Shown one piece after another: positions 20,595 to 41,326 of a DNA stretch of 64,000 bases. The DNA lies in contig NZ_CM002139.1 of assembly GCF_000454545.1 (NCBI RefSeq), positions 3,348,901-3,412,900 on the forward strand, read 5' to 3'. The notes below the pieces were generated by a model, which saw only the letters and a list, made by a program, of their open reading frames with translations, was not told where the DNA came from and searched no databases. Numbering within the stretch: the stretch's first letter is position 1; each line of letters opens with the position of its first letter. Both the position numbers and the translations under genes were made by a program. This DNA is from Xanthomonas cassavae CFBP 4642 (GTDB taxonomy: Bacteria; Pseudomonadota; Gammaproteobacteria; Xanthomonadales; Xanthomonadaceae).

Positions 20595-20661
20595 GGGCGT
20601 CTATGGAAGCGGAGGGGAACACCGCTGGAAGCGGAGGCCCCTATTCTCCCACACAGCGCGT

Positions 20662-20820
20662 TAGGGGAATCGGGCATGGAGAGTCGGATGCAGTATTGCC
20701 AATTGGTCATGCAATCACACGCGCGCCTAATCACCTTAGCCATACGTGAAGCTCACCGTCACACCCCGGGCCCGCACCAGCCCGCTTTACCCATTCCCCA
20801 CTCCCGATTCCCTATTCCTC
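20662..20820. repeat. GGGAATCGGG-type dispersed repeat pieces beside the symporter stop
   Basis: Two short pieces occur: GGGGAATCGGGCATGGAGAG near 20664-20685 and, in the opposite orientation, CCATTCCCCACTCCCGATTC with CCTATTCCTC (about 20790-20820). The second piece reaches into the stop codon of the symporter gene. The same motif family recurs near 48982-49038 and 52719-52852. Confidence 0.6.
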
Positions 20821-22092
20821 GCCCTTGGCCACCAAGGTCGTCAGCGCCAGATCCCCGGTCACGTTCAACGCCGTGCGGCACATGTCCAGGAAGTGGTTGA
20901 CGCCCAGGATCATGCCGATGCCGACCGGGTTGACCCCCACCATCGCGCAGATCAGCGCCACCACCGGCAGCGAGCCGGACGGCACGCCGGCGGTGCCGAT
21001 CCCACCCAGGATGCAGACCAGCATCACCATGAATTGCTGGCCGAGGCTCAAGTCCACGTTGAAGAACTGCGCCAGGAAGATCACCGTCACGCCTTCGAAC
21101 AGTGCGGTGCCGTTCTGGTTGGCGGTGGCGCCCACCGTCAGCACGAAGCGCGACACCCGCGGCGGCAGGCCCATCTCGTCGGCCACGCGCAGGGCGGTGG
21201 GCAGGGTCGCGTTGCTGGACGCAGTGGAGAACGCCATCAACGTGGCTTCCTGCGTCTGCTTGAAGAACCCCAGCGGCGAGCGCCCGGCGAACTTCACCGC
21301 CAGCCCGTAGCTCACCACCATGTGCAGCCCCAACGCCAGCACGACCACGCCCACGTAGGCGCCCAGGCGGATCACCAGATCGAAGCCGAACAACGCGGCC
21401 AGGTTGAACATGAAGCAGGCCACCGCATACGGCGCTAATCGGATCACCAGGCCGATCAGGGTCATCGAGATTTCGAAGATGCCCTCGATGGCGCGCTTGA
21501 GCGTGGCCACCTTTTCCTCGGCGGTCAGCACCATGCCCACGCCGAACATCACCGCAAAGAACATCAGCGACAGGATCGCGCCATTGCTGGACGCGGCGGC
21601 AATCACGTTGCTGGGCACGATCGACAGCAGCATGTCCATGCCCTGCGGCTGGGTGCCGGAGCTGGAGATGATCTCGCGGGTGCGTTCGGCGTTTTCCTGG
21701 ATCAGCTGATTGGCCAGCTGCGGGTCCACGCCCGCACCGGGCTTGAGCACATTGACCAGCACCAGACCGAGCAGCACTGCAATGCCGGACAGCACGACGG
21801 TGTAGCCCAGGGTGCGCCAGCCCACGCGGCCCAGCGCGCGGATGTCGCCCATGTCGGAGATGCCCATCACCAGTGCCGAAAACAGCAGCGGCACGATCAG
21901 CATGAAGATCAGATTGAGGAAGATCTGCGAGAACGGCGTAGTCACGTATTTGGTCGCCAGGCGCACCCCGTCGGCATCGCTGCCGGCCAGATAGTAGACG
22001 GCCAGACCCAGTACCAGGCCCACGGCAAAGCCAATACCCATCTTCCAATGCAGGGGCAGGCCCGGGCGGCGTGCGGCTGGGGATGCAGTCAT
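20812..22092 (-). CDS. Dicarboxylate/amino acid:cation symporter (DAACS family)
   Basis: A 426-residue inner-membrane carrier with about eight transmembrane segments plus two hairpin loops. The family signatures are present: serine-rich hairpin STASSNATLPTALRVADEMG and NQNGTALFEGVTVIFLAQ (the NxxGT motif of transmembrane segment 7), followed by LGGIGTAGVPSG. Members take up C4-dicarboxylates, glutamate or aspartate with H+ or Na+; substrate cannot be decided. The ATG at 22092 begins MTASPAARRPG; a longer opening (22134) lacks support. Its 3' end overlaps a dispersed GGGAATCGGG-type repeat. Confidence 0.92.
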   Translation of the reverse strand: MTASPAARRPGLPLHWKMGIGFAVGLVLGLAVYYLAGSDADGVRLATKYVTTPFSQIFLNLIFMLIVPLLFSALVMGISDMGDIRALGRVGWRTLGYTVVLSGIAVLLGLVLVNVLKPGAGVDPQLANQLIQENAERTREIISSSGTQPQGMDMLLSIVPSNVIAAASSNGAILSLMFFAVMFGVGMVLTAEEKVATLKRAIEGIFEISMTLIGLVIRLAPYAVACFMFNLAALFGFDLVIRLGAYVGVVVLALGLHMVVSYGLAVKFAGRSPLGFFKQTQEATLMAFSTASSNATLPTALRVADEMGLPPRVSRFVLTVGATANQNGTALFEGVTVIFLAQFFNVDLSLGQQFMVMLVCILGGIGTAGVPSGSLPVVALICAMVGVNPVGIGMILGVNHFLDMCRTALNVTGDLALTTLVAKGEE

Positions 22093-22370
22093 CTGGTCGG
22101 CCTTAGGGTGAACACAAAGACCGGAGCTTAACAAATGCCATCGGTGCGACCACGCGTGGGCCTGGATGACGACACAGACCAGCAGCTACCGTGCTGCCTG
22201 GTTGGTTCGACCTGGCGTAGACCGCCACGCGAGCCATAGCGTCGGCCTCTGATCGCAGGCAGTCATCTGCTAGCCTGGATGGCGCGCAGGATTGCAGCAG
22301 ACCAATGGTCGATGCCGATTCCGGACACCGGCCACGCCTGCCTGGCGGCGCGGCAGGGGTGTTGGCCGTT

Positions 22371-23633
22371 CTAGAAGTGATAGCCAATGACCGAGAAAAT
22401 GGATGTCTTGATCTGTCCGTCGCCGCCTTGCGCTGCACCGCCGAGGTATTGGCCGGCACCGACGAAGGGATCGTTGCGCCCAATCAGCAGCTCGGTGGAA
22501 ATCTGCAACGCAGCGCGCTTCCAGGCGACTCCCAGCGTCAAGCGCTCGCTGTCCTGGAATGCGGCCCGGTCTTTGAAGAAGCGTGAATAGCTGGCGTACG
22601 TGTTGAATGATTCGCTCCCCAGGGTGACCGGCATGCCAACTTCCGCAAACACCACGGTACCGCGGGTTGCGATGTTGTACGACGCATCGAAGCCACCGAC
22701 GGTGACAACGTCAGGGTTCCGCACTCCCGCCAGATTGATTTGCTGGCGTGCCGCAAGCAACTTCGCTGTCCAGGAAGCGGCCACCAGCTTGAGACTGGCC
22801 GCATACGCCAAACGCTCACCATCGCGATGACCGACGAGTCCGCTTTCGTCCACCAGCCGGGAGTGCAGGCCGGACACTGAGGCAGTGAGTTTCGCATCGC
22901 GATAGCTGGCTACATCCCAATCGTAGGTGGCGGCCAGCAGATCGCGTTCGGAGGTACTCGTCCCATCGGGTACGTAACCGTCGGCCTGCACGAACGTGGT
23001 GGAGTAGCGGGCACCATCGCGGCTGAGACCCTTGCCGTCCGGCGTTGAGATCGGGTAGTAGCCGGTGGACAGGCGATATCCTGGCCCGTCGTGCTTGTAG
23101 GTGATGCCCGGGGCATACACTTCTTCAAGACCGATCACGAATCCAATGCTACCCAACACCTGCGCACCCCAGTACTGATCGTCCAGTACCACCGGCTGCA
23201 GGCCTACCGCGATGCGATCGCCATTGGCAAGCCGGCGCCCGGCATACGCCTGCAGTGGGAAACCCACCTCGCCTGGATAGTTGCGATATCCGGAGGCGGT
23301 TGGATACAGAAAGCTTCCGCCATAGAAGCGGTACTGCGCTGACGCAAAATAATCGCGGCCGTCGAAGTCGGCTTTCAGGATGAAGGTGTCGAACGAAAGA
23401 TGATCGGAGGTCCGCCGTTGGCCGCCACCGCCGACATCGTTGAAACGCACGTCCCAACGTGCGCGCAACACCGCACCGGCCGTCCAGCCGGCCGGCGCCA
23501 CGGTCGCTGGAGTCGCATGTTCCACTGTCTGCGCTTGCACGCGGGCAGAACACACCAAAGCCAGTGCCAAGGCATTCGCGTACAGGCGTAATGGCAGGCG
23601 GGAGGGCAAAGCAAAACGATGAGCAATGGCCAT
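22371..23633 (-). CDS. Outer-membrane beta-barrel protein of the catabolic island
   Basis: A 420-residue exported protein: signal peptide with a hydrophobic core LYANALALALVCSARVQAQ, then alternating beta-strand segments rich in aromatic residues (FASAQYRFYGGSFLYP, ATYDWDVASY) and a C-terminal phenylalanine (FSVIGYHF) typical of BAM-assembled barrels. No specific porin family was recognised with certainty. The ATG at 23633 has GGGGATC upstream. It is the last gene of the leftward catabolic island, 93 bases after the decarboxylase-like gene, so it probably lets the substrate across the outer membrane. Confidence 0.75.
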   Translation of the reverse strand: MAIAHRFALPSRLPLRLYANALALALVCSARVQAQTVEHATPATVAPAGWTAGAVLRARWDVRFNDVGGGGQRRTSDHLSFDTFILKADFDGRDYFASAQYRFYGGSFLYPTASGYRNYPGEVGFPLQAYAGRRLANGDRIAVGLQPVVLDDQYWGAQVLGSIGFVIGLEEVYAPGITYKHDGPGYRLSTGYYPISTPDGKGLSRDGARYSTTFVQADGYVPDGTSTSERDLLAATYDWDVASYRDAKLTASVSGLHSRLVDESGLVGHRDGERLAYAASLKLVAASWTAKLLAARQQINLAGVRNPDVVTVGGFDASYNIATRGTVVFAEVGMPVTLGSESFNTYASYSRFFKDRAAFQDSERLTLGVAWKRAALQISTELLIGRNDPFVGAGQYLGGAAQGGDGQIKTSIFSVIGYHF

Positions 23634-23726
23634 GTTGAGATCCCCGGACATGTGCGCAGACGGAAGGCAACCGCAGCCCTTCCGCCCTTCACGGCGGCAA
23701 GGCCACTGCATGACGGAATGCCGCGT

Positions 23727-24116
23727 TTACGCCGGGTCAGCCGTATCGAACTCGGCGATCGCTTCCCGGGCGATGCGGAAGCTATCCACGGCCGCCGGCA
23801 CGCCGCAGTAGACCGCCACCTGCAGCAGCGCTTCACGGATTTTTTCGCGGGGGACACCATTGCGCAGCGCGCCTTGCACGTGGATCTTCAGCTCGTGCGG
23901 CCGGTTCAAGGCGGAAATCATCGCCAGGTTGATCAGACTCCGCTCGGAGCGGGCCAGATCGCTGCGCGCCCACACCGTGCCCCAGCAATATTCCGTGACC
24001 AATTCCTGCAGCGGCTGGCTGAAGGCATCGGCCTGTGCCAACGCGCGATCCACATAAGCATCGCCAAGCACTTCACGTCGAATCTGCAGGCCTTTCTCAA
24101 ATCGTGCGTCGCTCAT
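23727..24116 (-). CDS. Carboxymuconolactone decarboxylase-family protein
   Basis: A 129-residue, all-helical protein similar in layout to 4-carboxymuconolactone decarboxylase (PcaC): GLQIRREVLGDAYVDRAL at the N-terminus, YCWGTVWARSDLARSERSLINLAMISALNRPHELKIHV in the middle (key residues E, H), and the C-terminal REALLQVAVYCGVPAAVDSFR. There is no CxxC, so it is not an AhpD-type peroxidase. Its start overlaps the stop of the aldehyde dehydrogenase gene (ATGA). In this setting it is more likely to act on a ring-cleavage product than on protocatechuate; no other pca gene is nearby. Confidence 0.85.
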   Translation of the reverse strand: MSDARFEKGLQIRREVLGDAYVDRALAQADAFSQPLQELVTEYCWGTVWARSDLARSERSLINLAMISALNRPHELKIHVQGALRNGVPREKIREALLQVAVYCGVPAAVDSFRIAREAIAEFDTADPA

Positions 24117-25570
24117 GGTGTCATGCCTCCGAAGATGGTGTACTTGATGTCCAGGAAGTCTTCGATACCGTACTTTGATCCTTCGCGGCCCAGGCCGGAC
24201 TGCTTGATGCCGCCGAACGGCGCGACCTCGTTGGAGATGGCGGCACGGTTGATGCCAACCATGCCGTAGTCCAGTTGCTCACTCATGCGCCAGGCCCGGG
24301 CCAGATCGCGGGTATAGCAGTAGGCGGCCAAACCTGAATCGGTATCGTTGGCCAGTGCCACGGCCTCGCTTTCAGTGTGGAAGCGGAAGACCGCCGCCAG
24401 CGGCCCGAAGGTTTCATCACGGGCTACCTGCATGTCCGAGACCGCGTCGGCAATCAGGGTCGGCGCGTAGAAACATTCACCGGCCGGCAAGATGTGCCCG
24501 CCCGCAAGTAGCCGCCCGCCCTTGGCCAGCGCGTCATCCACATGCGACTGCACCTTGGCCACTGCTGCCGGATTGATCAGTGGGCCCACGTCGGTGTCGG
24601 CATCCTCACCGGAGCCAACCTTGAGCATGGTGATGCGCGCCTTGAGCGCGCTTAAAAAGACGTCGTAGACGGCATCCTGCACCAGGAAGCGATTCACGCA
24701 GACGCAGGTCTGGCCAGCATTGCGAAACTTGGCCAGCATGGCGCCATCTACGGCAGCCGGGATGTCCGCATCGTCGAACACGATGAAGGGCGCATTGCCA
24801 CCCAACTCCAGCGAAACCTTCTTGATGGTCTTCGCGGCCTTGCCATACAACAGACGCCCAATGGGAGTGGAGCCGGTGAAGGTGAACTTGCGCACCTCGG
24901 TGCTTTCAAAGAACGCTTCGCCGATGGCTTGCGCGTTGCCGGTCACCACGCTGAGCATCGCCGGCGGCACTCCCGCCTGCAGGGCCAGGTCGGCCAGCGC
25001 CAGCGCGGTGTACGGTGTTTCAGCCGCAGGCTTGACGATGCAGGGGCACCCAGCCGCGAGTGCCGGAGCCAGCTTGCGGGTAATCATCGCGGCGGGGAAA
25101 TTCCACGGCGTGACCGCTGCGACTACGCCGATGGGCTGCTTGGTCACCATGATGCGTGCGTCGCCATGCGGACTGGGAATGATGTCGCCGTAGACGCGTT
25201 TGGCTTCTTCGGCAAACCATTCCACGAAACTGGCCGCATACACGACCTCGGCACGCGCCTCGGCACGCGGCTTGCCCTGTTCCAGTGTGAGAATAGCCGC
25301 TAGTTCGTCGGCATGATCGATCATCAGCTGTAACCAACGCTTGAGGATGTCCGAACGCTCCTGCGCCGTGCGGCTGCGCCATTGCGGCCACTGCGCTTGC
25401 GCCAGTGCAATGGCACGCCGGGTCTCCTCACCAGCCATGCGCGGTACCGTGCCGATGACGCATTGGGTGGCGGGGTTGAAAATGTCGTCGGTCTGGCCAT
25501 CGTCGGCGGCGCACCATGTACCGGCGATCAGGGCCTTCTGGTGGAACAGGGCGAACGATTGAACGTCCAT
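24113..25570 (-). CDS. NAD(P)-dependent aldehyde dehydrogenase, succinate-semialdehyde dehydrogenase-like
   Basis: A 485-residue aldehyde dehydrogenase of the GabD type. Catalytic cysteine in NAGQTCVCVNRF, general-base glutamate in SLELGGNAPF, cofactor motif FTGSTPIGRLL and the ending EVAPFGGIKQSGLGREGSKYGIEDFLDIKY are all as in succinate-semialdehyde dehydrogenases; two adjacent cysteines (C-V-C) are typical of GabD. The ATG at 25570 starts MDVQSFALFHQ; the longer opening is not credible. Within the island it would perform the last step, yielding succinate for the TCA cycle. Substrate is inferred from family resemblance only. Confidence 0.9.
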   Translation of the reverse strand: MDVQSFALFHQKALIAGTWCAADDGQTDDIFNPATQCVIGTVPRMAGEETRRAIALAQAQWPQWRSRTAQERSDILKRWLQLMIDHADELAAILTLEQGKPRAEARAEVVYAASFVEWFAEEAKRVYGDIIPSPHGDARIMVTKQPIGVVAAVTPWNFPAAMITRKLAPALAAGCPCIVKPAAETPYTALALADLALQAGVPPAMLSVVTGNAQAIGEAFFESTEVRKFTFTGSTPIGRLLYGKAAKTIKKVSLELGGNAPFIVFDDADIPAAVDGAMLAKFRNAGQTCVCVNRFLVQDAVYDVFLSALKARITMLKVGSGEDADTDVGPLINPAAVAKVQSHVDDALAKGGRLLAGGHILPAGECFYAPTLIADAVSDMQVARDETFGPLAAVFRFHTESEAVALANDTDSGLAAYCYTRDLARAWRMSEQLDYGMVGINRAAISNEVAPFGGIKQSGLGREGSKYGIEDFLDIKYTIFGGMTP

Positions 25571-25626
25571 TGCGACCTCGTAGAATGGGCAAAGCCACAG
25601 CGTGCGTGACAGTGCGCGTGCAGCGC

Positions 25627-27018
25627 TCAGTTGACAGGAATGTTGGCGTGGCGTGGACTGCGCACCACGAGCAGCGCATAGCAGATCGCGCTGACGATCA
25701 GGCCGACGATCCAGGAAACGTCCACCCCACCGAACAGGCTGGCCCACGGTCCCTGGAAGAAGGTGTTGCTGATGAAAGGAACCTGCACCAGCGTACCGAT
25801 GACATAGGCCGTCATCGCCTTGCCGTTGAACAGGCCGTAACGACCGCCGTCACGCGCAAAGATCGAGGCGATGTCGTACTGGCCACGGTTGACCACGTAG
25901 AAGTCCAGCAAGTTGATCGACACCCACGGGGCGAGGATGAACAGCAGCGCGAACACGGCGTTGATGAAGATCTCGATGAAGTTGGACGATGCCCACAACG
26001 CACCCATCGTGGACACGGCCAGCAGCACGCACGACAGCGTGATCCGCGCCAGACTCCCCGGCGTCCACATGGGCGAGAAGGTCTGCAGTGAAGTCACGCA
26101 GGACAGCACCGCGCCATACAGGTTCATTGCGTTGTGGCCGATGATGTTGACCAGGAACAGGATCATCAGCGCGTAGCCGAACCCGCCGGTATGGATGCGC
26201 ACGGCCTCCATGGCGTCGGTCTGACCACCGCCGCTGACCGCCAACATGCCGAAGGCGAAGGCCAGGATGGGGCCAAGCGATGCGCCAAGATAGGTGTAGA
26301 TGAAGGGCTTGAACACGCCCACACTGCGCGGCAATGCGCGCGAATAATCCGAGGTGTAGGGAGAGAAACTGATCTGCCACACGCAGCCGATGCCGAACAT
26401 GGAAAACCAGCCGGCTGGCGTGAAGCCGCCTTGACTCAGCGTATCGGCACTGAGGTTGGGCACCATGATGGCCAGGCCGATGAGCAGCGCCCCGCCCATG
26501 AACCAGATGCCGATCCGGTTGAAGCTGTGAATGAAGGTGTAGCCAATGATACCGATGACGGTCGCCAGGGCCGCTCCTAGCACGGTCGCCAACGGCACGG
26601 GTATGGCGGGGATCACCGTGTGCAGCGTCTTGCCGGACAGGATGATGTTGGAGATGAAGTAGCCCAGGTAGATGAGCGTGGTGAAGCCCACCACCAGCAA
26701 CGAACCGAAGCGACCGAACTGTGCGCGGCTCTGGATCATCTGCGGAATGCCAGCCAGCGGCCCTTGTGCCGATGCCAGCGCCAGGACGATGGCACCGAAC
26801 AGGTGCCCGGCCACGATGGCGGTGATCGCGCTGACCACGTCCAACTTGAAGGTCAGGATGGACATCGCTCCGGTGATTACCGCCAACGGCGCGATGCTGG
26901 TACAGAACCAGAGGGTGAACAGGTCACGTGGATTCCCGTGGCGCTGCTGGTCCGGGATATAGCCGATGGAGTGACCCTCGATGGCGAAAACGCCGTCTTG
27001 CTTGTCTGCGATGCTCAT
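25627..27018 (-). CDS. NCS1-family permease (purine/cytosine/hydantoin/thiamine-type)
   Basis: A 463-residue inner-membrane transporter with about twelve hydrophobic segments. The N-terminal PDQQRHGNPRDLFTLWFCTSIAP and GHLFGAIVLALASAQGPLAGIPQMIQSRAQFGRFGS are clear landmarks of the nucleobase:cation symporter-1 family, of which CodB, Mhp1 and thiamine/pyridoxine carriers are members. Substrates of the family are almost all nitrogen heterocycles. The ATG at 27018 has AAGGATC upstream. It lies inside the catabolic island, separated from the upstream aldehyde dehydrogenase by 169 bases, and is probably the uptake system for the compound degraded. Confidence 0.9.
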   Translation of the reverse strand: MSIADKQDGVFAIEGHSIGYIPDQQRHGNPRDLFTLWFCTSIAPLAVITGAMSILTFKLDVVSAITAIVAGHLFGAIVLALASAQGPLAGIPQMIQSRAQFGRFGSLLVVGFTTLIYLGYFISNIILSGKTLHTVIPAIPVPLATVLGAALATVIGIIGYTFIHSFNRIGIWFMGGALLIGLAIMVPNLSADTLSQGGFTPAGWFSMFGIGCVWQISFSPYTSDYSRALPRSVGVFKPFIYTYLGASLGPILAFAFGMLAVSGGGQTDAMEAVRIHTGGFGYALMILFLVNIIGHNAMNLYGAVLSCVTSLQTFSPMWTPGSLARITLSCVLLAVSTMGALWASSNFIEIFINAVFALLFILAPWVSINLLDFYVVNRGQYDIASIFARDGGRYGLFNGKAMTAYVIGTLVQVPFISNTFFQGPWASLFGGVDVSWIVGLIVSAICYALLVVRSPRHANIPVN

Positions 27019-27187
27019 GTTCGTTGATCCTTGGGCAGGATCGACCACGCCACCCGCAGGCACTCTGCGCGGATGTGGACCGATTCAGTCATCAGTTTGG
27101 GAGCACTGCAACGCCCATCGAGGGGGAGGCGGGCAGTGCCGGCGGGTAACGCGTTGGAATGTCGCCAATGCGGAAGAGCACAGCGCC

Positions 27188-28657
27188 CTAGCGCATCACG
27201 AAGGGGTCATCCATGGGCGTCTCGGAAGTGCGTAGCCACACCGTCTTGGTGGTGGTGTATTCCAGGGCTGCCGCCGCGCCCCCCTCCCGGCCGTGACCGG
27301 AGAGCCCGAAGCCGCCGAATGGGGCCAGCGGAGAGATCGCGCGGTACGTATTGATCCAGACCACGCCGGCTTGGATCGAACGGCTCAGGCGGTGGGCGCG
27401 GCTCAGCTCGCGGGTGAAGATGCCAGCGGCCAATCCGAACGAGGTGCCGTTGGCCTTGGACACTGCTTCCTCCTCGCTGCTGAAGACATCGATCGACAGC
27501 ACGGGGCCGAACAGCTCGGTGGTGATGCTGTCTGCCTGTGGGGTGTGGCTACAATCAACAATGGTGGGCGGGAAGTAATGGCCCGGACGTTCGAGGCGGG
27601 TGCCACCGCATAGCAGCCTGGCCCCCTGCTGCAGGGAGGAGGCAAGCACCTGTTCGATGTGCTGCAACTGGCGCGCAGTGCATAGCGGGCCGAACTCGGT
27701 GTCGGCGTCGCTGGGGGCGCCGATGGTGATCGCCGCCACTTTCTCCAGCAGTTTGGCCAGGAAGGCGTTCTTGATGTCGGCATGGACGAGCAGCCGGGAA
27801 CCGGCCACGCAGCTCTGCCCGCTGGCCGCGAAAATCGCCGCCAACTGCGCGTTCACCGCACTTTCCAGATCGGCATCCTCGAACACCACGAACGGCGACT
27901 TGCCACCCAGCTCCAGCGAAACACGGGCCAGGTTGTTCTGGCTGTTGCCCACGACATGCCGTGCCGTTGCCGGGCCGCCGGTAAAAGCGATCTGGGCCAC
28001 CTTGGGATGCGCGCTGAGTACCGCGCCGCATTCCGGACCGAAGCCGGTGATCACATTCACCACGCCCGGTGGAAAACCGGCGGCATGCAGCAACCGCGCG
28101 AAGGCCAGTAGCGGGGCCGGCGCGTCTTCCGAGGCTTTCAGCACCACCGTGCAGCCGGCGGCCAGTGCCGGACCCAGCTTCACTGCCGAAAGGAACAGCT
28201 GGCTGTTCCATGGCACGATGGCAGCCACCACGCCGATCGGCACGCGATTCAGCCAGACCTGCATGTCCGGCTTGTCCACTGGCACGACGCTGCCTTCGAT
28301 CTTGTCGGCGATGCCGGCGTAGTAGCGGTAGTACTCGGCGATGTAGGCAATCTGGCCGCGGGTTTCGCGGATGATTTTGCCGGTGTCGCGAGTTTCGATC
28401 GCGGCCAGCTCCGATGCCTCCTTCTCCAGCAGGTCTGCCAGCCGGTACAGCAGCTTGCCGCGCTGGGAGGCGGTCAGGCCGGCCCAGGCTGGCGCATGCA
28501 GGGCGCGGTCGGCGGCCTCGACGGCACGCTCCACCTGCTCCCGACGCGCCTCGGGCATACTGGCCCAAGGTTCGCCCGTGGCCGGGTCCACACTGTCGAA
28601 CGTGGCCGCCCCGGCCTCGAAGCGACCATCGATGTAGAGTTCGAATGGACGGGTCAT
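27188..28657 (-). CDS. Aldehyde dehydrogenase, second of the island
   Basis: A 489-residue aldehyde dehydrogenase. Catalytic cysteine in ASGQSCVAGSRL, glutamate in SLELGGKSPFVVF, cofactor segment FTGGPATARHVV and C-terminal INTYRAISPLAPFGGFGLSGHGREGG are intact. It is distinct from the GabD-like enzyme and closer in feel to betaine/4-hydroxymuconic-semialdehyde-type dehydrogenases. The ATG at 28657 is preferred over an upstream in-frame TTG at 28663. It starts two bases after the luciferase-like monooxygenase gene, so it probably oxidises the aldehyde that enzyme produces. Confidence 0.9.
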   Translation of the reverse strand: MTRPFELYIDGRFEAGAATFDSVDPATGEPWASMPEARREQVERAVEAADRALHAPAWAGLTASQRGKLLYRLADLLEKEASELAAIETRDTGKIIRETRGQIAYIAEYYRYYAGIADKIEGSVVPVDKPDMQVWLNRVPIGVVAAIVPWNSQLFLSAVKLGPALAAGCTVVLKASEDAPAPLLAFARLLHAAGFPPGVVNVITGFGPECGAVLSAHPKVAQIAFTGGPATARHVVGNSQNNLARVSLELGGKSPFVVFEDADLESAVNAQLAAIFAASGQSCVAGSRLLVHADIKNAFLAKLLEKVAAITIGAPSDADTEFGPLCTARQLQHIEQVLASSLQQGARLLCGGTRLERPGHYFPPTIVDCSHTPQADSITTELFGPVLSIDVFSSEEEAVSKANGTSFGLAAGIFTRELSRAHRLSRSIQAGVVWINTYRAISPLAPFGGFGLSGHGREGGAAAALEYTTTKTVWLRTSETPMDDPFVMR

Positions 28658-28659
28658 GG

Positions 28660-29700
28660 TCAATCCTGGAAGGCAGGCATCACGTCATGGATCATTCGCA
28701 ACAGCGAGGCTTTCTTGCGTTCAAAGCTCATGCCGGTGTCGATCCAGAACGCGTATTCGTCAAAGCCCATCGCCTCATACGCCTTGAGGCGAGCAATCAC
28801 CTCGGCAGGCTCGCCGATGACGTTGTTGCGACGCATGGCCTGGGCCGAGTACATCGGATGGGCGGCGATCTCTTCCTCGCTCAGCGGAGCGATCAAGCCC
28901 TGGCTGATCTCGCGCTTGTTCATGAACCACGCGCCGAAGTAGTTGTAGAACACGTTGATCTCATCGGCGGCCAGTTGTGCATCGGCCTCTGAGTCCGCCA
29001 CGTAAGTGTGGCGCAGCAGCATGATCTTCGGGCGCGGCACCTCAGCGAATTTGGCACAGGCCGCATTGAAGTGGCCGATCAGCTTTTCCACTTCCTCGTC
29101 ACCGAAGTGGAGCGGAGTGACCTGCACATTACAGCCGTTTTGAACGGCGAATTCATGACTGTTGGGGTCGCGCGCGGCTACCCAGATCGGCGGATGTGGC
29201 TGTTGCACGGGTAACGGAGCCGAGGTCGTCCTGGGAAACTGCCAGAACTCGCCGTCGTGGGTGTAATCGCCCTTCCACAGCCCCTTGATGGCGGGAATCA
29301 GCTCGCGCAAGCGCTGGCCGGCAGCCCAGGCGTCCATTCCCGGCATCAGACGCTCGTACTCGAACGAGTACGCGCCGCGCGCAATGCCCAGATCCAGCCG
29401 GCCATTGGAAATGATGTCGGTCATGGCCGCTTCGCCGGCCAGTTTGATCGGATGCCAGAACGGGGCCACCACAGTGCCTGTGCCCAGACGTACGTTCTTG
29501 GTCTTGTTGGAAAGATCGGCGAGGTTGAGCAGTGGGTTCGGGGCGATGGTGAAGTTCATGCCGTGGTGCTCGCCGGTCCAGATGGCATGCATGCCACCCT
29601 CGTCAGCGATCGTGCACAACGTAATCATCTCGTCGTACAGCTGCTGCTGGGCTTGCTGGTCCGAAACCCGCTCCATATGGATGAACAAGGAAAACCGCAT
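28660..29700 (-). CDS. Luciferase-like (LLM class) flavin-dependent monooxygenase
   Basis: A 346-residue TIM-barrel monooxygenase of the bacterial luciferase class, which needs reduced flavin supplied by a partner reductase. Seen features: MRFSLFIHMERVSDQ, the WTGEHHGM motif, LGTGTVVAPFWHPIKLAGEAAMTDIISNGRLDLGIARGAY (substrate/flavin pocket region), PPIWVAARDPNSHEFA. The ATG at 29700 has AGGAG seven bases upstream. The flavin reductase gene ends one base before it, so the pair forms a two-component monooxygenase. Such enzymes hydroxylate or open rings; the substrate here is unknown. Confidence 0.92.
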   Translation of the reverse strand: MRFSLFIHMERVSDQQAQQQLYDEMITLCTIADEGGMHAIWTGEHHGMNFTIAPNPLLNLADLSNKTKNVRLGTGTVVAPFWHPIKLAGEAAMTDIISNGRLDLGIARGAYSFEYERLMPGMDAWAAGQRLRELIPAIKGLWKGDYTHDGEFWQFPRTTSAPLPVQQPHPPIWVAARDPNSHEFAVQNGCNVQVTPLHFGDEEVEKLIGHFNAACAKFAEVPRPKIMLLRHTYVADSEADAQLAADEINVFYNYFGAWFMNKREISQGLIAPLSEEEIAAHPMYSAQAMRRNNVIGEPAEVIARLKAYEAMGFDEYAFWIDTGMSFERKKASLLRMIHDVMPAFQD

Positions 29701-29701
29701 C

Positions 29702-30619
29702 TCAACTCTCCTTTCCAATCAGTTCTTTGACCACCCCGTGGGTATGGTCGCCGTAGTAGGTGCCGCAGGTTTTCAGCTCGCGTTCCCGGCAATAGCGTTG
29801 CAGCATGCTTTTGATCGCTGCATCTGGAATGTCCAGCCCCGGAACGTCCTTGAGTTCGACGTAGATGCCGTCGGTGGCGCTTGCGTGAGGGGTACTGCAC
29901 AAGAACGCCACGAACTGTTGCTGCGTCCGGGTATCGGTGTAGACCGAGTAGACGAAGTTGGCCGAGGCCCCGCGCTGGTAGCGGGCAAAGATGCGCTCCA
30001 GCGCCGCATCGGCTCCTTCGTTGCCGGTTGCGACGGTCGGCAACGTGTAGCCCCCCGACGGCGCGGCCACCAGCAACACGCGATTTTCGTGCGCGACGAT
30101 TGCGCTGATCAGCATCTTGGCGTCGGCGATGACTTCGCTGGCGATCTTGGCCGGGGTGAAATAGCCGCCGCGGTAGTAACCCAGCCCTGGCAGGCCAGCG
30201 GCATGGAAATCTTCCACCAGACCAATCAGGATGGCGTGGTCGCCAGCCTCCACCACCTTGTGCATGGTGCAATCGAACCAGGCGCTGACATCCTTGAGCA
30301 CTGGGTTGCCGCGGGCGCTGCTGGACCAGGCAACCGAAGCGAAGCGGTCCGGGTGACGGCGCGCAAACGTGTTTGACGCCTCGGTCTGCGCCTCGGCCAG
30401 GATGTTCACCGCAAAGCGCTGCGCGCCGTTGAAGTTGTCGAAGTTGCCTGACGTGCGGGCGATGCTGACCAGCAACAGTGGCGGATCCAACGAGACCGAA
30501 CTGAACGAATTGGCGGTAAAGCCGATCGGCTCCCCGTCGGCGGTCACTGTCGTCACGATGGTGACGCCAGTCATGAACGAACCGAAGGCATCCCTCAGTT
30601 CTTTTGGATTGATGACCAT
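29702..30619 (-). CDS. Flavin reductase fused to a Nudix-like C-terminal domain
   Basis: A 305-residue protein. Residues 1 to about 165 are a standard flavin reductase domain (MVINPKELRDAFGSFMTGVTIVTT, IGFTANSFSSVSLDPPLLLVSI, FAVNILAE, ILIGLVEDFHAAG) that reduces FMN or FAD with NAD(P)H for the adjacent monooxygenase. Residues about 170-305 form an additional alpha/beta domain (NRVLLVAAPSGGYTLPTVATG...DAALERIFARY) that resembles a Nudix fold without a complete Nudix box. Stand-alone flavin reductases are usually about 170-190 residues, so the extra domain is notable. RBS GGAGGG precedes the ATG. Confidence 0.88.
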   Translation of the reverse strand: MVINPKELRDAFGSFMTGVTIVTTVTADGEPIGFTANSFSSVSLDPPLLLVSIARTSGNFDNFNGAQRFAVNILAEAQTEASNTFARRHPDRFASVAWSSSARGNPVLKDVSAWFDCTMHKVVEAGDHAILIGLVEDFHAAGLPGLGYYRGGYFTPAKIASEVIADAKMLISAIVAHENRVLLVAAPSGGYTLPTVATGNEGADAALERIFARYQRGASANFVYSVYTDTRTQQQFVAFLCSTPHASATDGIYVELKDVPGLDIPDAAIKSMLQRYCRERELKTCGTYYGDHTHGVVKELIGKES

Positions 30620-30660
30620 ATGTTCCCTCCAACCGATGGCTCAAGTGGTGTATCCGGTGG

Positions 30661-31455
30661 TCAGCGCGTCGTGGTCTCCAGCCATTCGGCCATTGCAGCG
30701 TTGACTTTGGTCGGTGCGGTCAGATTGACCATGTGGCGTTCTTCGGGAATGACCACGGCCTTGGCATTGCGCGCCAGCCGGGCCATCGTTTCGGCCATGG
30801 CGGGTGTGGAATTGCCATCGTCGGCGCCGGTCAGCACCAAGGCAGGGCAGGTCACTTCATTCCAGCGGTTTGCGTAGCTGGCATCGCCACGCGCGAATGC
30901 CCGGTAAGCGGCGGCATACCCTTGCATGTCCACGTTTTCCAGCCAGCTGCGCACATCCTCGACCAGCGAAGCGTCGGTGGATTCTTCGCAGAACCAGCGT
31001 TGCAACGGGGTATCGACGTCCAGGCGGCCACTGACAAGCTCGTTGGAGCGAGCGATCACCGCCGCACGGGCCGCCTCGGTCCGTAGGTGGACACCGTTGA
31101 TGACTGCCAGGCGCTTGACCAGATCTGGTCGCTCGATCGCCACGCCTGCGGCGATCAGCGCACCCATCGAATGTCCGGCCAGATTCACCGGGCCCAGGTC
31201 CAGTGCGCTGATGAACGCCGACATCCAGGACACGTAGTCGGTCAGTGCCGGTTCGCCAGGCATCAGGCTGCTTTGGCCATGGCCGGGCATGTCCACCGCG
31301 ACGACCCGGAACGTGCCGGCAAAGCGGGCGATCTGCGGCCCCCATGCGGCGGCCTGCATGCCCACGCCGTGGATCAGGACCAGGGGCTCCCCTCTCCCCT
31401 GCTCCAGATAATGGACCTGCCGGCCGTCAGACAGCGGCAGGATTCGAGAGGTCAT
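30661..31455 (-). CDS. Alpha/beta-fold hydrolase
   Basis: A 264-residue hydrolase. The oxyanion motif LVLIHGVGMQAAAW, nucleophile elbow GHSMG with serine at residue 96, the acid in VLTGADDGNS and histidine in EERHMVN make a complete catalytic triad. General similarity is to enol-lactonases (PcaD-like), RutD-like and carbon-carbon bond hydrolases. The ATG at 31455 overlaps the end of the DUF1185 gene by 29 bases, so translation is coupled. In the island it likely hydrolyses the ring-opened amide, ester or lactone. Confidence 0.88.
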   Translation of the reverse strand: MTSRILPLSDGRQVHYLEQGRGEPLVLIHGVGMQAAAWGPQIARFAGTFRVVAVDMPGHGQSSLMPGEPALTDYVSWMSAFISALDLGPVNLAGHSMGALIAAGVAIERPDLVKRLAVINGVHLRTEAARAAVIARSNELVSGRLDVDTPLQRWFCEESTDASLVEDVRSWLENVDMQGYAAAYRAFARGDASYANRWNEVTCPALVLTGADDGNSTPAMAETMARLARNAKAVVIPEERHMVNLTAPTKVNAAMAEWLETTTR

Positions 31456-32026
31456 GGCCAAGCTCTTTGAGATCCTGATAACGGTCGCCGATGCGATGGT
31501 GCGGACGGCCGGTGGTTGCTGCACCCAGCACGATCACCAGTTCGTCGGCGGCCGGCGCATCGGAAATCGCAAACTGCACCGTGAGGTAGTGCGAACGGCG
31601 ACCTTCATCGTTCTTGTCCATCATCGGCAACACGATCGGGCTGTTGGCCGGGCCGCGCGTGTTGGTGAAGGCCAGGTAGGACTTTGCCTTGACCGCGTTG
31701 CGATAGATGTTGCCGAAATGCAGCGTGTGGATGAGCGCCGAGGCATGTTCCAGTTCACCGCTCAAGCCGACCACCGCGCTCTTGCCGAAGGCCTCCACCG
31801 CATCGCCGGAGCCGAGCTCGCCCAGGATCAGGTCCGTGAGGTGGTGACTCAGCTGCGGCCCCAGCGCCCTGATCTCCGGCGAAAGATCTTCCACGTAGCC
31901 GCGGCCCGCCCACGGATTCTGGATCACCGCTGCGGCGGCAATCAGCGTGAGCGGCTTGGCTGCCACGCGACCACCGTCGACGTGGACGGTTTCGATATGG
32001 AGAACGGTTTTTCGTATCAGGCTCAT
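31427..32026 (-). CDS. DUF1185 ('amino acid synthesis') family protein
   Basis: A 199-residue protein of the DUF1185/AA_synth family: IRKTVLHIETVHVDGGR at the start, AAAAVIQNPWAGRGYVEDLSP, GKSAVVGLSGELEHASALIHTLHFGN and VVLG-type C-terminal strand (DELVIVLGAATTGRPHHRIGDRYQDL). Biochemical function is not established; such genes occur beside flavin monooxygenases, NCS1 carriers and aldehyde dehydrogenases. It is the first gene of the leftward operon, 49 bases from the palindrome at 32076-32089. Confidence 0.85.
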   Translation of the reverse strand: MSLIRKTVLHIETVHVDGGRVAAKPLTLIAAAAVIQNPWAGRGYVEDLSPEIRALGPQLSHHLTDLILGELGSGDAVEAFGKSAVVGLSGELEHASALIHTLHFGNIYRNAVKAKSYLAFTNTRGPANSPIVLPMMDKNDEGRRSHYLTVQFAISDAPAADELVIVLGAATTGRPHHRIGDRYQDLKELGHDLSNPAAV

Positions 32027-32075
32027 AGAGGACTTCCCGGTGTACAGAGCAGCGACATCTTTTGGAGTACCGTAT

Positions 32076-32089
32076 GTTGGTATACCAAC
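32076..32089. promoter_or_regulatory. Perfect 14-bp palindrome, candidate GntR operator
   Basis: GTTGGTATACCAAC is a perfect dyad at the divergent promoter between the catabolic operon (start at 32026) and its GntR/FCD regulator (start at 32286). The TGGTATACCA core fits operators of FadR-subfamily regulators. It is the natural site for the co-located regulator. Confidence 0.75.
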
Positions 32090-32285
32090 GGCAAGGACGG
32101 TAGCATGCCCGGAAAACGGCTTGCAAGACCATTATTCGTATTCATTTTCGATCTGCTGCGTACGGAATAGACAGGGTCTTCCAGGCCTGCTATTCAGCAT
32201 TCGTGTTTGAATAGCGAAGACGCTGGAATGCGACGAGATCGGCCCGACATGCGCGACGGCCAGCTGAGGGGAAGCGCCAACCATC

Positions 32286-32957
32286 ATGAATCTGAGAATC
32301 GACCACACCCCGGTGACACTTCGGGAGAAATGCCAGGAGAAATTGCGCAACGCGATCATCACGGGCTATTTCCCGTCGGGTGCACGGCTGGTTGAACGCA
32401 CCTTGTGCGAACAGCTGGGTGTCAGCCGTTCCGTGGTGCGGGAGGTGATCCGCTACCTGCAGGCCGAAGGGCTGGTCGAGGTACGTCCTCAAAAAGGCCC
32501 GATCGTCGCAGTGCTCAACTGGAATGTGGCCAACCAGGTCTACCGGATTCGCATGGTGATGGAGCAGGCGGCCGTAGCCGACTGCGTGCGAAACCTCACC
32601 GATGAATCGGCCAGTGAGATCATGCAGGCGTGTGAACGGCTCCGGCTGTCGTACGATTCACCCAAAATCGCAAACGTGCTCGAAGCGTCGTCTGCCTTGT
32701 ACGAAACCATCTTTCGGGTAGGCAACAACCCTATCGCATGGGAGATTGTCCAGCGCCTCAATGGCCGTATCAGTCGCCTGCGTGCGATGACGATGACCCA
32801 CAAGGCACGAGAGAAAACCGGATTCGAGCGAATTCGCGCGATCTGCGAGGCAATTTGTGTACAGCGCGATGACGCCGCTGCGCGCGACCGGGTGGCCGAA
32901 CACATCAGGGAAGCCCAAGCCATCGCATACACCCTTCTTGAGGGAGAACCACGCTGA
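32286..32957 (+). CDS. GntR-family regulator with FCD domain
   Basis: A 223-residue FadR-subfamily regulator. Winged helix at residues about 10-75 with LREKCQEKLRNAIITGYFPSGARL and ERTLCEQLGVSRSVVREVIRYLQAEGLVEVRPQKG; the rest is an all-helical FCD ligand-binding domain (RIRMVMEQAAVADCVRNL, HKAREKTGFERIRAICEAI). It is divergent from the catabolic operon and is probably its substrate-responsive regulator acting at the 14-bp palindrome. The stop overlaps the start of the DUF1330 gene (TGATG), coupling the two. Confidence 0.93.
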   Translation: MNLRIDHTPVTLREKCQEKLRNAIITGYFPSGARLVERTLCEQLGVSRSVVREVIRYLQAEGLVEVRPQKGPIVAVLNWNVANQVYRIRMVMEQAAVADCVRNLTDESASEIMQACERLRLSYDSPKIANVLEASSALYETIFRVGNNPIAWEIVQRLNGRISRLRAMTMTHKAREKTGFERIRAICEAICVQRDDAAARDRVAEHIREAQAIAYTLLEGEPR

Positions 32958-33271
32958 TGGCCGCCTACTGGATTGCCCACGTCACCATTCTGGATCCGCA
33001 CAACTACCAGAACTACATGAGTTTGGCGCCGGCCGCCTTTGCCCAGTACGGAGCCAAATTCCTGGCGCGCGGCGGACCATCGGTCACGCTGGAGGGTCAG
33101 GAGTCACAGCGGCACGTCGTCATCGAGTTCGAAGATTTCACCACGGCGCAAGCGTGTTACCACTCCGAGGCGTATCAACAAGCAAAAGCGCGACGAGACG
33201 GATGTTGTATTGCACACATCGTCATCGTCGATGGTGTCGCGTCACTCGAAACGCCTATTCCCCCTCAATAA
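32957..33271 (+). CDS. DUF1330 family protein
   Basis: A 104-residue ferredoxin-like-fold protein of the DUF1330 family: MAAYWIAHVTILDPHNYQNYM, then FLARGG and the central VVIEFEDFTTAQACYHSEAYQQAKARRD. Function is undefined in the family, though members are frequent in catabolic clusters. Its start overlaps the GntR gene stop by one base. It ends the island on the right; the bat operon converges from the other side. Confidence 0.9.
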   Translation: MAAYWIAHVTILDPHNYQNYMSLAPAAFAQYGAKFLARGGPSVTLEGQESQRHVVIEFEDFTTAQACYHSEAYQQAKARRDGCCIAHIVIVDGVASLETPIPPQ

Positions 33272-33372: not shown

Positions 33373-35118
33373 TCAGGGCGCTGGCGGATACAACGGCGCC
33401 AACACGTCCGGCTCTGCCGCGCTGGCATTGCGCCAACGCGGCCCCTTGGAGAACGCCTCGCGCAACGCAGCGCGGGCGCCGGCCACATCGCCGTCGCCGC
33501 CCCAGCGCGCACGTTGCATCCGCGCTACGGCTGCGCGCTGGGCGGGATCGGCCAGGGCGGCCAGCACGCTGTCGATATCAGCCACACCGGCCATGCCGCA
33601 GAGCACGGTTGCCACCTCGTCCATCCCGTCGGCATCCAGCGCGCGGCGTAACTCGGCTACGCCGTGCGTGGCGCGCCGGCCCGGCATGACGATCTCTGCG
33701 CCGTGGGTGCCGGACGCCGTGCGCGATGCGCCACGTCGGCGCAGCAGCACCCATGCCAGCGTGAGCACCCACAGCAGCGCGAAGCCTGCCGCTGCGGCGA
33801 TCCACCCCCAGGGCCGCCCCTGCGGCGGCGGCTGCACCGTCAGTGCGCCGGTGGCCGCTGCAGGTGCAGGGCCAGCGGCGGCCGGACCCGTAGCCGGCTC
33901 AGGTGCAGGCGCCGGCACCGCGAACGCACCGCTGCCCGCCGCGACGTCCAGCGTCAGGTCCGGCACGGTTGCCGTCTTTGCAGCAGCCGCACCCACATCC
34001 CACCACGCCACCTGCAGGCCGGGCACGACCAGCGGGCCGGCGCGGTTGGGCACGATCGAATAGCGCCGGGTCAGTCGCAACTGCGGCGAGCCGTCCACAA
34101 ACCGTTCTTCGTATTGCGGCGGTTCGGCGAACACCTGCGCATCCGGCACGCTCGGCGTGGGCAGCTCGGGGAACTGCGCCTGAGTGGCGCCACGTGCACT
34201 GGCTTCCACCACAAACTGCGCGGCCTCGCCGGCAGTGGCGCGCTGCGGGGTGGCTGTATACCGCAACTGCAGGCTGCGCAGCGGCAACCACGGTTGCGGT
34301 GCGTTGGCCGGCTGCGCCCGCACCTGCAACGGAATGCTGGCGCTGCGCGCGCTCAGCTCGCCAGTGCCGCGGCCGAAGTAATCGTCGAAGAAACCGCCCA
34401 CGGAGCGGCCGGTGAAGCGCGCCGACGGCAGCAGCAGACGCCCGCTGCGCTCGGGCACCAGCAGATAGCGCCGCTCCACCACGTTGTAGTGACGCCCGTT
34501 GACCAGCTTGACCGAACTGACGTCATCGCCAACGCGTTGCAACGACGCACCATCGGGCGCTTCCAGATCCAGCTCGCCGGAGGCCAGCTGGTTGGCGAAA
34601 TACAGGCGCACCACCACGCCCACGCTTTGCTGCACGAAGGGCTGCGGGTCGTCTACCTGGGTCTGGACGAAGGCCTCTTCGTTGCCCTGCGCCGCACTGG
34701 GCCCGTTCGCGGCACCGGCGCCGCTGTCTGCGGCATCGTTTGCCGAGCCCACCACCTGCAGCCGCAGCGGCTCGGTGCGCTCACCGCCGACGCGAATCGC
34801 CGGCACGATCACCTCACCGCTCTTGCGCGGCGTCAGCACCACGCCGAACAACGCGCGGACCGTCACCCCGCCGTTGGCCACCTGCATCTGCTGGTTGGCG
34901 CTCTTGGCACCCAGTGCGAAGTCGTTGCGCAACGGCGAGTAGTCCGGATCGACACCGCGCTGATCGGTTTCGATGTTCAACGTCACCGCATCACCGCTAT
35001 TGACGCTGTCGCGGTCCAGCCAGGCGCGCGTCACCGCACCCGCCGGTGCGCAGAACACCAGCGCGGCGCTGCTCAGCATGCCGATCGCCACGCGGCGCAA
35101 GTGGTATGTGCCGATCAT
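33373..35118 (-). CDS. batD: BatD-family membrane protein
   Basis: A 581-residue protein: signal peptide (GMLSSAALVFCAPAGA), periplasmic Ig-like beta domains (VTRAWLDRDSVNSGDAVTLNIETDQ, later FVQQSVGVVVRLYFANQLASGEL), a Pro/Ala linker near residue 400-440, then one transmembrane helix (WGWIAAAAGFALLWVLTLAWVLL) and a cytoplasmic helical tail. This matches BatD of the Bacteroides aerotolerance (Bat) group. The start at 35118 overlaps the BatB/C stop. It is the last gene of the operon moxR-DUF58-DUF4381-batA-batB/C-batD; role in envelope stress response is inferred from the family. Confidence 0.9.
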   Translation of the reverse strand: MIGTYHLRRVAIGMLSSAALVFCAPAGAVTRAWLDRDSVNSGDAVTLNIETDQRGVDPDYSPLRNDFALGAKSANQQMQVANGGVTVRALFGVVLTPRKSGEVIVPAIRVGGERTEPLRLQVVGSANDAADSGAGAANGPSAAQGNEEAFVQTQVDDPQPFVQQSVGVVVRLYFANQLASGELDLEAPDGASLQRVGDDVSSVKLVNGRHYNVVERRYLLVPERSGRLLLPSARFTGRSVGGFFDDYFGRGTGELSARSASIPLQVRAQPANAPQPWLPLRSLQLRYTATPQRATAGEAAQFVVEASARGATQAQFPELPTPSVPDAQVFAEPPQYEERFVDGSPQLRLTRRYSIVPNRAGPLVVPGLQVAWWDVGAAAAKTATVPDLTLDVAAGSGAFAVPAPAPEPATGPAAAGPAPAAATGALTVQPPPQGRPWGWIAAAAGFALLWVLTLAWVLLRRRGASRTASGTHGAEIVMPGRRATHGVAELRRALDADGMDEVATVLCGMAGVADIDSVLAALADPAQRAAVARMQRARWGGDGDVAGARAALREAFSKGPRWRNASAAEPDVLAPLYPPAP

Positions 35119-40549: not shown

Positions 40550-41326
40550 TTAGTTGCGAGTAAGGATCAATGCCTGTGGAAAATTGCTTCCGCAAGAATT
40601 CGTGCTTACCGAACCACTACTACGCCATCCTGCTGGAATTGGAGAAATTGGGCAAACAGCGATTCCCTGAGTGGGGAGTTGAATGTAACGCTGACCAAAA
40701 GTACACGTCTGCCCATTGTTATCATAGGCTTGCGTTACTACATATCCGTCAGGAATAGATGAATCGGCACAAACTAACATACCATTGCGAGCGATTTCGA
40801 AACGGCGTTGCCCATAAGTATTTCCGCACACGGAAGATTGGCCGTTCCATGTAAAGACATAACCCGGGGGCACAGGGCTATTACCGCACGCCAATATGCC
40901 GTTAGTTGCTTGCCTTATGTAGTACTGCCCAGCCAGGCACCCCCGGGGAGTTGAATCTATATTAGTAATGACATAGCCGCTGGGGATAGGCGATCCAGCA
41001 CATATTTGAAGATTTTCGCGAGCTTTGCCGATCCGCAACCTTACCTCGCCACAGGCGGTTGTGTTGTTATCACCAAAAGGGACCACGACATACGGAGATG
41101 GCACGGGAGAGCTTCTACATACAAGTTGGCTTTCATACGGCAACTCAATCTGCCAACCTTGCCCGCTATTACAAGCAGGCCGATTAGTCAAAGCCGTCTT
41201 TACGTATCCGGCAGGTATAGCGTCATTACTGCAAACAACAGTTTGTGCAAAAACGCCAAATGTAGAAAATGCACTTAAAACTATTACTGCAACTAAATAA
41301 TTTTTTACACTAAAGAATGTTTTCAC
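40550..41326 (-). CDS. Secreted protein of six cysteine-pair repeats, unknown function
   Basis: A 258-residue protein with a signal peptide (VAVIVLSAFSTFGVFAQ). The mature part is six tandem repeats of 38-39 residues. Their first cysteines are C32, C70, C109, C147, C186 and C225; the second cysteines are C52, C92, C130, C167, C208 and C245. Each repeat opens with C-x4-[SA]-[IV]-P-x-G-Y or a close variant (CAGSPIPSGYV, CADSSIPDGYV). Regular spacing suggests one disulphide per repeat. No family was recognised. The start is GTG with AGAGGTG upstream. The gene is much AT-richer than its surroundings and lies 60 bases after pilQ in the same direction, with its own terminator; it could be co-transcribed with pilQ. 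Confidence 0.75.
   Translation of the reverse strand: MKTFFSVKNYLVAVIVLSAFSTFGVFAQTVVCSNDAIPAGYVKTALTNRPACNSGQGWQIELPYESQLVCRSSPVPSPYVVVPFGDNNTTACGEVRLRIGKARENLQICAGSPIPSGYVITNIDSTPRGCLAGQYYIRQATNGILACGNSPVPPGYVFTWNGQSSVCGNTYGQRRFEIARNGMLVCADSSIPDGYVVTQAYDNNGQTCTFGQRYIQLPTQGIAVCPISPIPAGWRSSGSVSTNSCGSNFPQALILTRN

What the first reader, a model, noticed from the sequence alone, without database searches (positions are those of the whole stretch)
22371..33271. Uncharacterised catabolic island that may open a nitrogen heterocycle
A regulated set comprises an outer-membrane barrel, NCS1 carrier, two-component flavin monooxygenase, alpha/beta hydrolase, two aldehyde dehydrogenases (one of succinate-semialdehyde type), a carboxymuconolactone-decarboxylase-like protein, DUF1185 and DUF1330. 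NCS1 carriers move nitrogen heterocycles. The known pyridine pathway of Arthrobacter uses a flavin monooxygenase with reductase, an aldehyde dehydrogenase, an amidohydrolase and succinate-semialdehyde dehydrogenase; the Rut pyrimidine pathway also uses a luciferase-like enzyme, a flavin reductase and an alpha/beta hydrolase. A similar ring-opening logic leading to succinate is plausible here, with an unknown, perhaps plant-derived substrate.
Basis: inference. Interest (0 to 1): 0.75.

Follow-up and report, generated by a model that had tools for sequence, protein, structure and literature searches.

The report
Trigonelline-degrading gene cluster in Xanthomonas
This stretch carries a known set of genes with which bacteria open and eat trigonelline, a small nitrogen-ring compound of plants, here in a Xanthomonas; it is a sound but ordinary find, with one helper protein whose job is still open.

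Summary
But the cluster is not uncharacterised: it matches the trigonelline (N-methylnicotinate) tgn cluster of Acinetobacter. The monooxygenase is 84% identical to its A. baylyi counterpart, and relatives are named 'flavin-dependent trigonelline monooxygenase oxygenase component'. All 11 genes have counterparts in the A. baylyi locus; an annotated Acinetobacter plasmid shows the same set with tgnA, tgnB and tgnC named. It is an optional island: present in 2 of 35 Xanthomonas species genomes, with the site empty in 26 of 30 fetched loci. A palindrome, TTGGTATACCAA, found once in the 5.27 Mb genome, stands before the operon; its core is kept with at most one mismatch in all 78 of 80 loci where tgnF was found. 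It is the likely operator. Still open: the DUF1185 protein (TgnF), present in 67 of 67 well-flanked loci although only 28 show a succinate-semialdehyde dehydrogenase nearby; it may be an enzyme in its own right. New member of a known kind; interest low to moderate.

The parts
32957..33271 (+). DUF1330 protein (104 aa), beside the regulator; role unknown
   Evidence: PF07045; 64% identical to the A. baylyi counterpart; a match of 40% or more in 58 of 67 well-flanked loci
32286..32957 (+). GntR-FCD regulator, presumed repressor of the cluster
   Evidence: PF00392 + PF07729; 53% identical to A. baylyi counterpart, same divergent position
32077..32088 (.). Presumed operator, palindrome TTGGTATACCAA, in the divergent intergenic region
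   Evidence: Only copy in the 5.27 Mb genome; core TGGTATACCA exact in 61 and with one mismatch in 17 of the 78 loci with tgnF, within 300 bp upstream of it
31427..32026 (-). tgnF-like: DUF1185 / AA_synth protein (199 aa)
   Evidence: PF06684; 78% identical to A. baylyi; solved relatives 2qtp and 3byq; PMC7913881 calls TgnF homologous to its DUF1185 protein
30661..31524 (-). tgnD-like: alpha/beta hydrolase (ORF; likely start 31455, overlapping the end of tgnF)
   Evidence: PF12697; 58% identical to A. baylyi; fourth-best solved relative is 3kxp, alpha-(N-acetylaminomethylene)succinic acid hydrolase; GHSMG motif
29702..30619 (-). tgnA: flavin reductase component (305 aa)
   Evidence: PF01613; 56% identical to A. 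baylyi, 59% to annotated TgnA of Acinetobacter sp. PK01
28660..29718 (-). tgnB: luciferase-like oxygenase component (ORF; likely start 29700, 346 aa)
   Evidence: PF00296; 84% identical to A. baylyi; relatives named flavin-dependent trigonelline monooxygenase oxygenase component
27188..28663 (-). tgnC: aldehyde dehydrogenase for the butyrolactone intermediate (ORF; likely start 28657)
   Evidence: 70% identical to A. baylyi, 72% to annotated TgnC of PK01; ELGG and GQSC motifs
25627..27063 (-). NCS1-type permease, presumed trigonelline uptake (ORF; likely start 27018)
   Evidence: PF02133; 64% identical to A. baylyi counterpart; only PF02133 match found in the genome
24113..25747 (-). tgnE-like: succinate-semialdehyde dehydrogenase (ORF; likely start 25570)
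   Evidence: TIGR01780 647.1 bits, cut-off 646.35; 70% identical to A. baylyi
23727..24116 (-). CMD-family protein (129 aa), accessory, role unknown
   Evidence: PF02627; TIGR02425 158.6 bits, cut-off 155.7, but a better-scoring PcaC lies elsewhere in the genome (196.9 bits); 72% identical to A. baylyi
22371..23711 (-). outer-membrane barrel, presumed porin for the substrate (ORF; likely start 23633)
   Evidence: no Pfam hit; 27% identical over 322 residues to a product of the A. baylyi locus; the PK01 counterpart matches Porin_O_P

Best explanation
This is an orthologue of the tgn cluster for growth on trigonelline (N-methylnicotinate). The porin and the NCS1 permease bring trigonelline in (inferred). 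TgnA supplies reduced flavin to TgnB, which cleaves the C5-C6 bond of the ring and gives an N-methylformamido-methylene hydroxybutyrolactone. TgnC oxidises that to N-methylformamido-methylene succinate. TgnD hydrolyses it to formate, methylamine, CO2 and succinate semialdehyde. TgnE makes succinate. These steps are known for A. baylyi (chemistry recalled from Perchat et al. 2018) and are carried over here by orthology; none was measured in this organism. TgnF (DUF1185) assists the end of the route. The GntR protein represses the operon by binding the TGGTATACCA palindrome until the substrate or an intermediate is present (inferred). The cluster is an optional island in Xanthomonas.
For: Monooxygenase 82-84% identical to proteins named flavin-dependent trigonelline monooxygenase oxygenase component in Acinetobacter. 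All 11 genes have counterparts in the A. baylyi DSM 14961 locus on matching strands: TgnB 84, TgnF 78, CMD 72, TgnC 70, SSADH 70, NCS1 64, DUF1330 64, hydrolase 58, TgnA 56, GntR 53, porin 27% identity. The annotated PK01 plasmid has the same set, tgnA, tgnB and tgnC named, with tgnC called (Z)-2-((N-methylformamido)methylene)-5-hydroxybutyrolactone dehydrogenase. Sarcosine-oxidase-like genes lie beside the PK01 cluster; I read them as methylamine use, but they could be true sarcosine oxidase. Hydrolase relative 3kxp is named for an acylaminomethylene succinate. Papers: TgnA/TgnB open the ring of trigonelline (PMC8269262, passage); TgnF stimulates TgnE-dependent succinate semialdehyde oxidation in ADP1 (PMC7913881, passage). 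Operator.
Against: No growth, enzyme or expression data for this organism. Perchat et al. 2018 itself was not held, so the chemistry is recalled plus two citing passages. The porin is only 27% identical and stands at a different place in the operon. The own genome showed no relative of the PK01 sarcosine-oxidase-like alpha subunit beyond 32% identity over its last third; the methylamine dehydrogenase search was uninformative because its control rang nowhere. The fate of the methylamine nitrogen is therefore unexplained. The palindrome is also kept in loci where no GntR gene stands directly divergent (one search found that layout in 49 of the 80 loci), so the link of palindrome to this regulator is not proved.
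Confidence: 0.9

Rival explanations
1. The same enzymes, but the physiological substrate is a different N-substituted pyridine (for example homarine, N-methylnicotinamide or another N-alkyl nicotinate).
For: Orthology does not fix the substrate exactly; the reductase, hydrolase, regulator and permease are only 53-64% identical to A. baylyi.
Against: TgnB is 84% and TgnC 70% identical to the A. baylyi proteins. PMC8269262 argues that TgnA/TgnB are unlikely to act on homarine for steric reasons (passage).
Confidence: 0.07
2. A pyridine pathway of the Arthrobacter type.
For: Same kinds of enzymes: flavin monooxygenase, reductase, aldehyde dehydrogenase, SSADH.
Against: Direct comparison with the Arthrobacter proteins was not made.
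Confidence: 0.02
3. A Rut-type pyrimidine pathway.
For: Luciferase-like enzyme, flavin reductase, alpha/beta hydrolase and NCS1 carrier are shared kinds.
Against: RutF and RutD models far below cut-off, and no RutA model among the 25 of 29 rows shown for the monooxygenase; no RutB- or RutC-type Pfam hit in the cluster's genes.
Confidence: 0.005
4. A decayed or silent passenger island without use to its host.
For: Optional: 2 of 35 Xanthomonas species genomes.
Against: All 11 reading frames translate without internal stops and are 90-98% identical to those of X. cucurbitae, and the palindrome is kept.
Confidence: 0.03

Closest known systems
tgn trigonelline catabolic cluster of Acinetobacter: A. 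baylyi DSM 14961 (L022) and Acinetobacter sp. PK01 plasmid NZ_CP094644.1 (L085)
   Same: Same 11 genes, same divergent GntR-DUF1330 pair, same order tgnF-tgnD-tgnA-tgnB-tgnC-permease and SSADH-CMD
   Different: Porin gene is last here but stands between permease and SSADH in Acinetobacter; porin only 26-27% identical; PK01 has sarcosine-oxidase-like genes next to it, the window has none there
Burkholderia multivorans plasmid locus NZ_CP020399.1 (L087)
   Same: Core tgnF-D-A-B-C, NCS1 permease, CMD, DUF1330
   Different: No SSADH counterpart in the cluster, CMD only 46% identical, no porin match, best GntR match 41% and further away, an ABC transporter upstream
7-hydroxycoumarin hcd cluster of Pseudomonas mandelii 7HK4 (HcdD)
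   Same: Contains a DUF1185 protein described as homologous to TgnF (PMC7913881, passage)
   Different: Different ring and enzymes; the authors could not observe a stimulating effect of HcdD
alpha-(N-acetylaminomethylene)succinic acid hydrolase (PDB 3kxp; vitamin B6 degradation, recalled)
   Same: Alpha/beta hydrolase for an acylaminomethylene succinate (name; reaction recalled)
   Different: N-acetyl instead of N-methyl-N-formyl substrate; distant (63.7 bits, fourth row, below two esterases and an enol-lactonase)

Membership tests
tgn trigonelline cluster | TgnB-type oxygenase orthologue | tested here: met
   84% identity to A. baylyi, named relatives at 82-84%
tgn trigonelline cluster | TgnA reductase, TgnC dehydrogenase and TgnD hydrolase next to it | tested here: met
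   56, 70 and 58% to A. baylyi, contiguous
tgn trigonelline cluster | TgnE SSADH and TgnF DUF1185 | tested here: met
   70 and 78% to the A. baylyi counterparts; SSADH subfamily cut-off just passed
tgn trigonelline cluster | Growth on, or turnover of, trigonelline | not testable with these tools
   needs cultures or purified enzymes
Rut pyrimidine pathway | RutF and RutD equivalogs | tested here: not met
   90.0 against cut-off 254.75 and 68.6 against 238.5
Arthrobacter pyridine pathway | Sequence kinship of the monooxygenase with the pyridine enzyme | not tested
   no reference sequence was fetched
Protocatechuate PcaC (for the CMD protein) | TIGR02425 equivalog score | tested here: inconclusive
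   158.6 against 155.7, but the genome has another copy at 196.9, and a CMD gene is found in 30 of 67 well-flanked tgn loci
Rid/YjgF enamine hydrolases (for TgnF) | Shared fold with clear structural match | tested here: inconclusive

The most novel reading that the evidence does not exclude
TgnF, the DUF1185 protein, is not a helper of the succinate-semialdehyde dehydrogenase but a core enzyme of the route: it hydrolyses the methylamino-enamine, or decarboxylates the formylsuccinate, left after the formyl group is removed, and so supplies free succinate semialdehyde. That would give the PF06684 family a catalytic role and explain the reported stimulation of TgnE.
Probability: 0.2. Interest if true: 0.5.

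Novelty: new member of a known kind. Interest (0 to 1): 0.27.

Why it matters
It gives a substrate and a pathway to a gene island in a Xanthomonas, where automatic names would read as generic oxidoreductases, cytosine permease or protocatechuate enzyme. Trigonelline is a widespread plant solute (recalled), so the island is a candidate nutritional trait that differs between Xanthomonas species. The conserved palindrome gives a simple marker for the regulon, and the tight conservation of TgnF makes the unsolved role of the DUF1185 family directly testable.

Tried and rejected
Pyridine and Rut readings: see rivals (scores). Homarine: considered; set aside on the passage in PMC8269262; a paper search for homarine catabolic genes (11 papers, 10 listed) showed no dedicated gene paper by title, and none of those papers was opened.

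Recent transfer from the X. cucurbitae lineage: considered because the Bat protein looked only 85% identical against 97% for TgnB. Rejected as unproved: the low value goes with one divergent patch at 33500-34000 (65%), while the other 500-base bins of flanks and island are alike at 90-98%, and the transketolase gene is 94-95% to G012, G013 and G017 alike. One gain with losses, or a transfer, remain open.

Methylamine use: see evidence against. Sigma-70 promoter scan of 31950-32400 found nothing. NCBIfam has no model over cut-off for the monooxygenase among the 25 of 29 rows shown. Structure comparison of TgnF outside DUF1185: the threonyl-tRNA synthetase rows of Foldseek have TM about 0.2-0.26 and rmsd about 8-11, taken as noise. 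In a family-wide sample 1 of 297 genomes (the own one) had TgnB at E <= 1e-100, although named Stenotrophomonas proteins are 91-92% identical to TgnF; that sample was drawn from a larger group, one genome per species. Species of the window: not determined.

Print: searches 'Xanthomonas, trigonelline, degradation' (21 papers, 15 listed) and searches showed no paper on tgn genes in Xanthomonas by title or abstract start; the library holds only open-licence papers, and the palindrome was not searched for in print.
Full report
What is there. Nine run on the minus strand as an apparent operon; the GntR-FCD regulator and the DUF1330 gene run the other way. The left neighbours are a sodium:dicarboxylate symporter and a transketolase, the right neighbours a Bat/MoxR operon. 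The window lies in a 5.27 Mb genome in 7 contigs. It belongs to the genus Xanthomonas: the same-genus genome G013 carries the 97% identical TgnB at the contig number and position that the named record of X. cucurbitae CFBP2542 (L002) gives. The species was not determined.

What it is. The luciferase-like monooxygenase has relatives named 'flavin-dependent trigonelline monooxygenase oxygenase component' in Acinetobacter at 82-84% identity over 98% of its length. The own genome has no second copy; the two other matches are 31% and 22% identical. The A. baylyi DSM 14961 locus (L022) has counterparts of all 11 genes: TgnB 84, DUF1185 78, CMD 72, TgnC 70, SSADH 70, NCS1 64, DUF1330 64, hydrolase 58, TgnA 56, GntR 53 and porin 27% identical. 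The annotated plasmid of Acinetobacter sp. PK01 (L085) shows DUF1330-GntR facing DUF1185, alpha/beta hydrolase, tgnA, tgnB, tgnC, cytosine permease, a hypothetical protein (Porin_O_P match), SSADH and CMD. The window has the same set, with the porin moved to the end. So this is a tgn cluster.

How it works. The chemistry is recalled from Perchat et al. 2018 (PNAS), which was not held. I saw only its citation and two passages of other papers: TgnA/TgnB open the aromatic ring of trigonelline and are unlikely to act on homarine (PMC8269262), and TgnF, called homologous to the DUF1185 protein HcdD, stimulates TgnE-dependent succinate semialdehyde oxidation in A. baylyi ADP1, an effect not observed for HcdD (PMC7913881). 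The steps are: cleavage of the C5-C6 bond by TgnAB to a hydroxybutyrolactone, oxidation by TgnC, hydrolysis by TgnD to formate, methylamine, CO2 and succinate semialdehyde, and oxidation by TgnE to succinate. Supporting signs here: the name of tgnC in PK01 is (Z)-2-((N-methylformamido)methylene)-5-hydroxybutyrolactone dehydrogenase; the hydrolase has alpha-(N-acetylaminomethylene)succinic acid hydrolase as fourth-best solved relative; the dehydrogenases keep ELGG and GQ.C motifs and the hydrolase GHSMG; sarcosine-oxidase-like genes, which I read as methylamine use, lie next to the PK01 cluster. Uptake by porin and permease and repression by GntR are inferred.

Conservation. Counting any match at E <= 1e-5 in the fetched stretch (both dehydrogenases only at 50% identity or more), the 80 loci hold TgnC 80, hydrolase 79, TgnF 78, TgnA 78, GntR 75 (often another GntR gene further away), DUF1330 65, NCS1 40, SSADH 40, CMD 32, porin 15. 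Among the 67 loci with enough flank (13 dropped) and with stricter limits: TgnF 67, hydrolase 67, TgnA 63, DUF1330 58, NCS1 33, CMD 30, SSADH 28. The core is thus tgnF-D-A-B-C; transport, SSADH and CMD are modules that vary. TgnF stays where no SSADH of 50% identity or more lies within 10 kb (39 of 67), which sits poorly with a mere SSADH helper, though an SSADH may lie elsewhere in those genomes or be less alike.

Operator. In the 259-base divergent spacer stands TTGGTATACCAA at 32077-32088, about 50 bases before tgnF. It occurs once in the whole genome. Its core TGGTATACCA lies within 300 bases upstream of tgnF exactly in 61 and with one mismatch in 17 of the 78 loci with tgnF (of 80), and 61 of the 69 exact copies in 1.55 Mb of those loci lie in that place. 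X. cucurbitae and A. baylyi are among the 17. In the window alone the match is not far from chance (0.34 expected with up to one mismatch); the weight comes from conservation. The loci are related, so they are not 78 independent cases. One search found a GntR gene directly divergent in 49 of the 80 loci (and in the window and PK01); the palindrome is also kept in the rest. I take it as the binding site of the GntR protein; binding is untested.

Island. TgnB at E <= 1e-60 is found in 2 of 35 Xanthomonas species genomes, the own one and X. cucurbitae. The neighbouring Bat gene is in 35 of 35, of which 30 loci were fetched: 26 show the symporter and Bat flanks with a spacer of about 0.2-1.0 kb and no island, 2 end too early, 1 is the own locus and 1 is X. 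cucurbitae, where the stretch continues into the island. In L089, the closest relative at the Bat gene (96% identical), the spacer is 1010 bases. Island and flanks are equally similar to X. cucurbitae, so timing and direction of gain are open. G+C of the island is 0.57-0.65 per kilobase, of the right flank 0.67-0.73, but the left flank, 0.63-0.66, is like the island, so composition does not prove foreign origin.

Verdict.

Noticed in passing
window 40550-41326 (-): A 258-aa protein with a signal-like start and repeated cysteine units of the kind C..S.IP.GYV, no Pfam match at E <= 0.1, in a dip of G+C (0.48 at 41000-42000) between the MoxR/Bat operon and a secretin gene.
   Followed up: partly
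window 33500-34000: A 500-base patch of the Bat gene is only 65% identical to X. cucurbitae while the bins around it are 91-97%, and the whole Bat stretch of G017 is 96% identical: looks like a local allele exchange.
   Followed up: no
G000:C6:733388-733750 and window 23727-24116: Two CMD proteins over the PcaC cut-off in one genome; the one in the tgn cluster passes it by about 3 bits and could be misnamed by automatic annotation.
   Followed up: partly
L085:1453-8407 and 19528-23265: In Acinetobacter sp. PK01 the tgn cluster is framed by sarcosine-oxidase-like genes, folD, purU, an ammonium transporter and a DUF1989-GcvT fusion: an apparent one-carbon and nitrogen harvesting add-on not seen beside the window's cluster.
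   Followed up: partly
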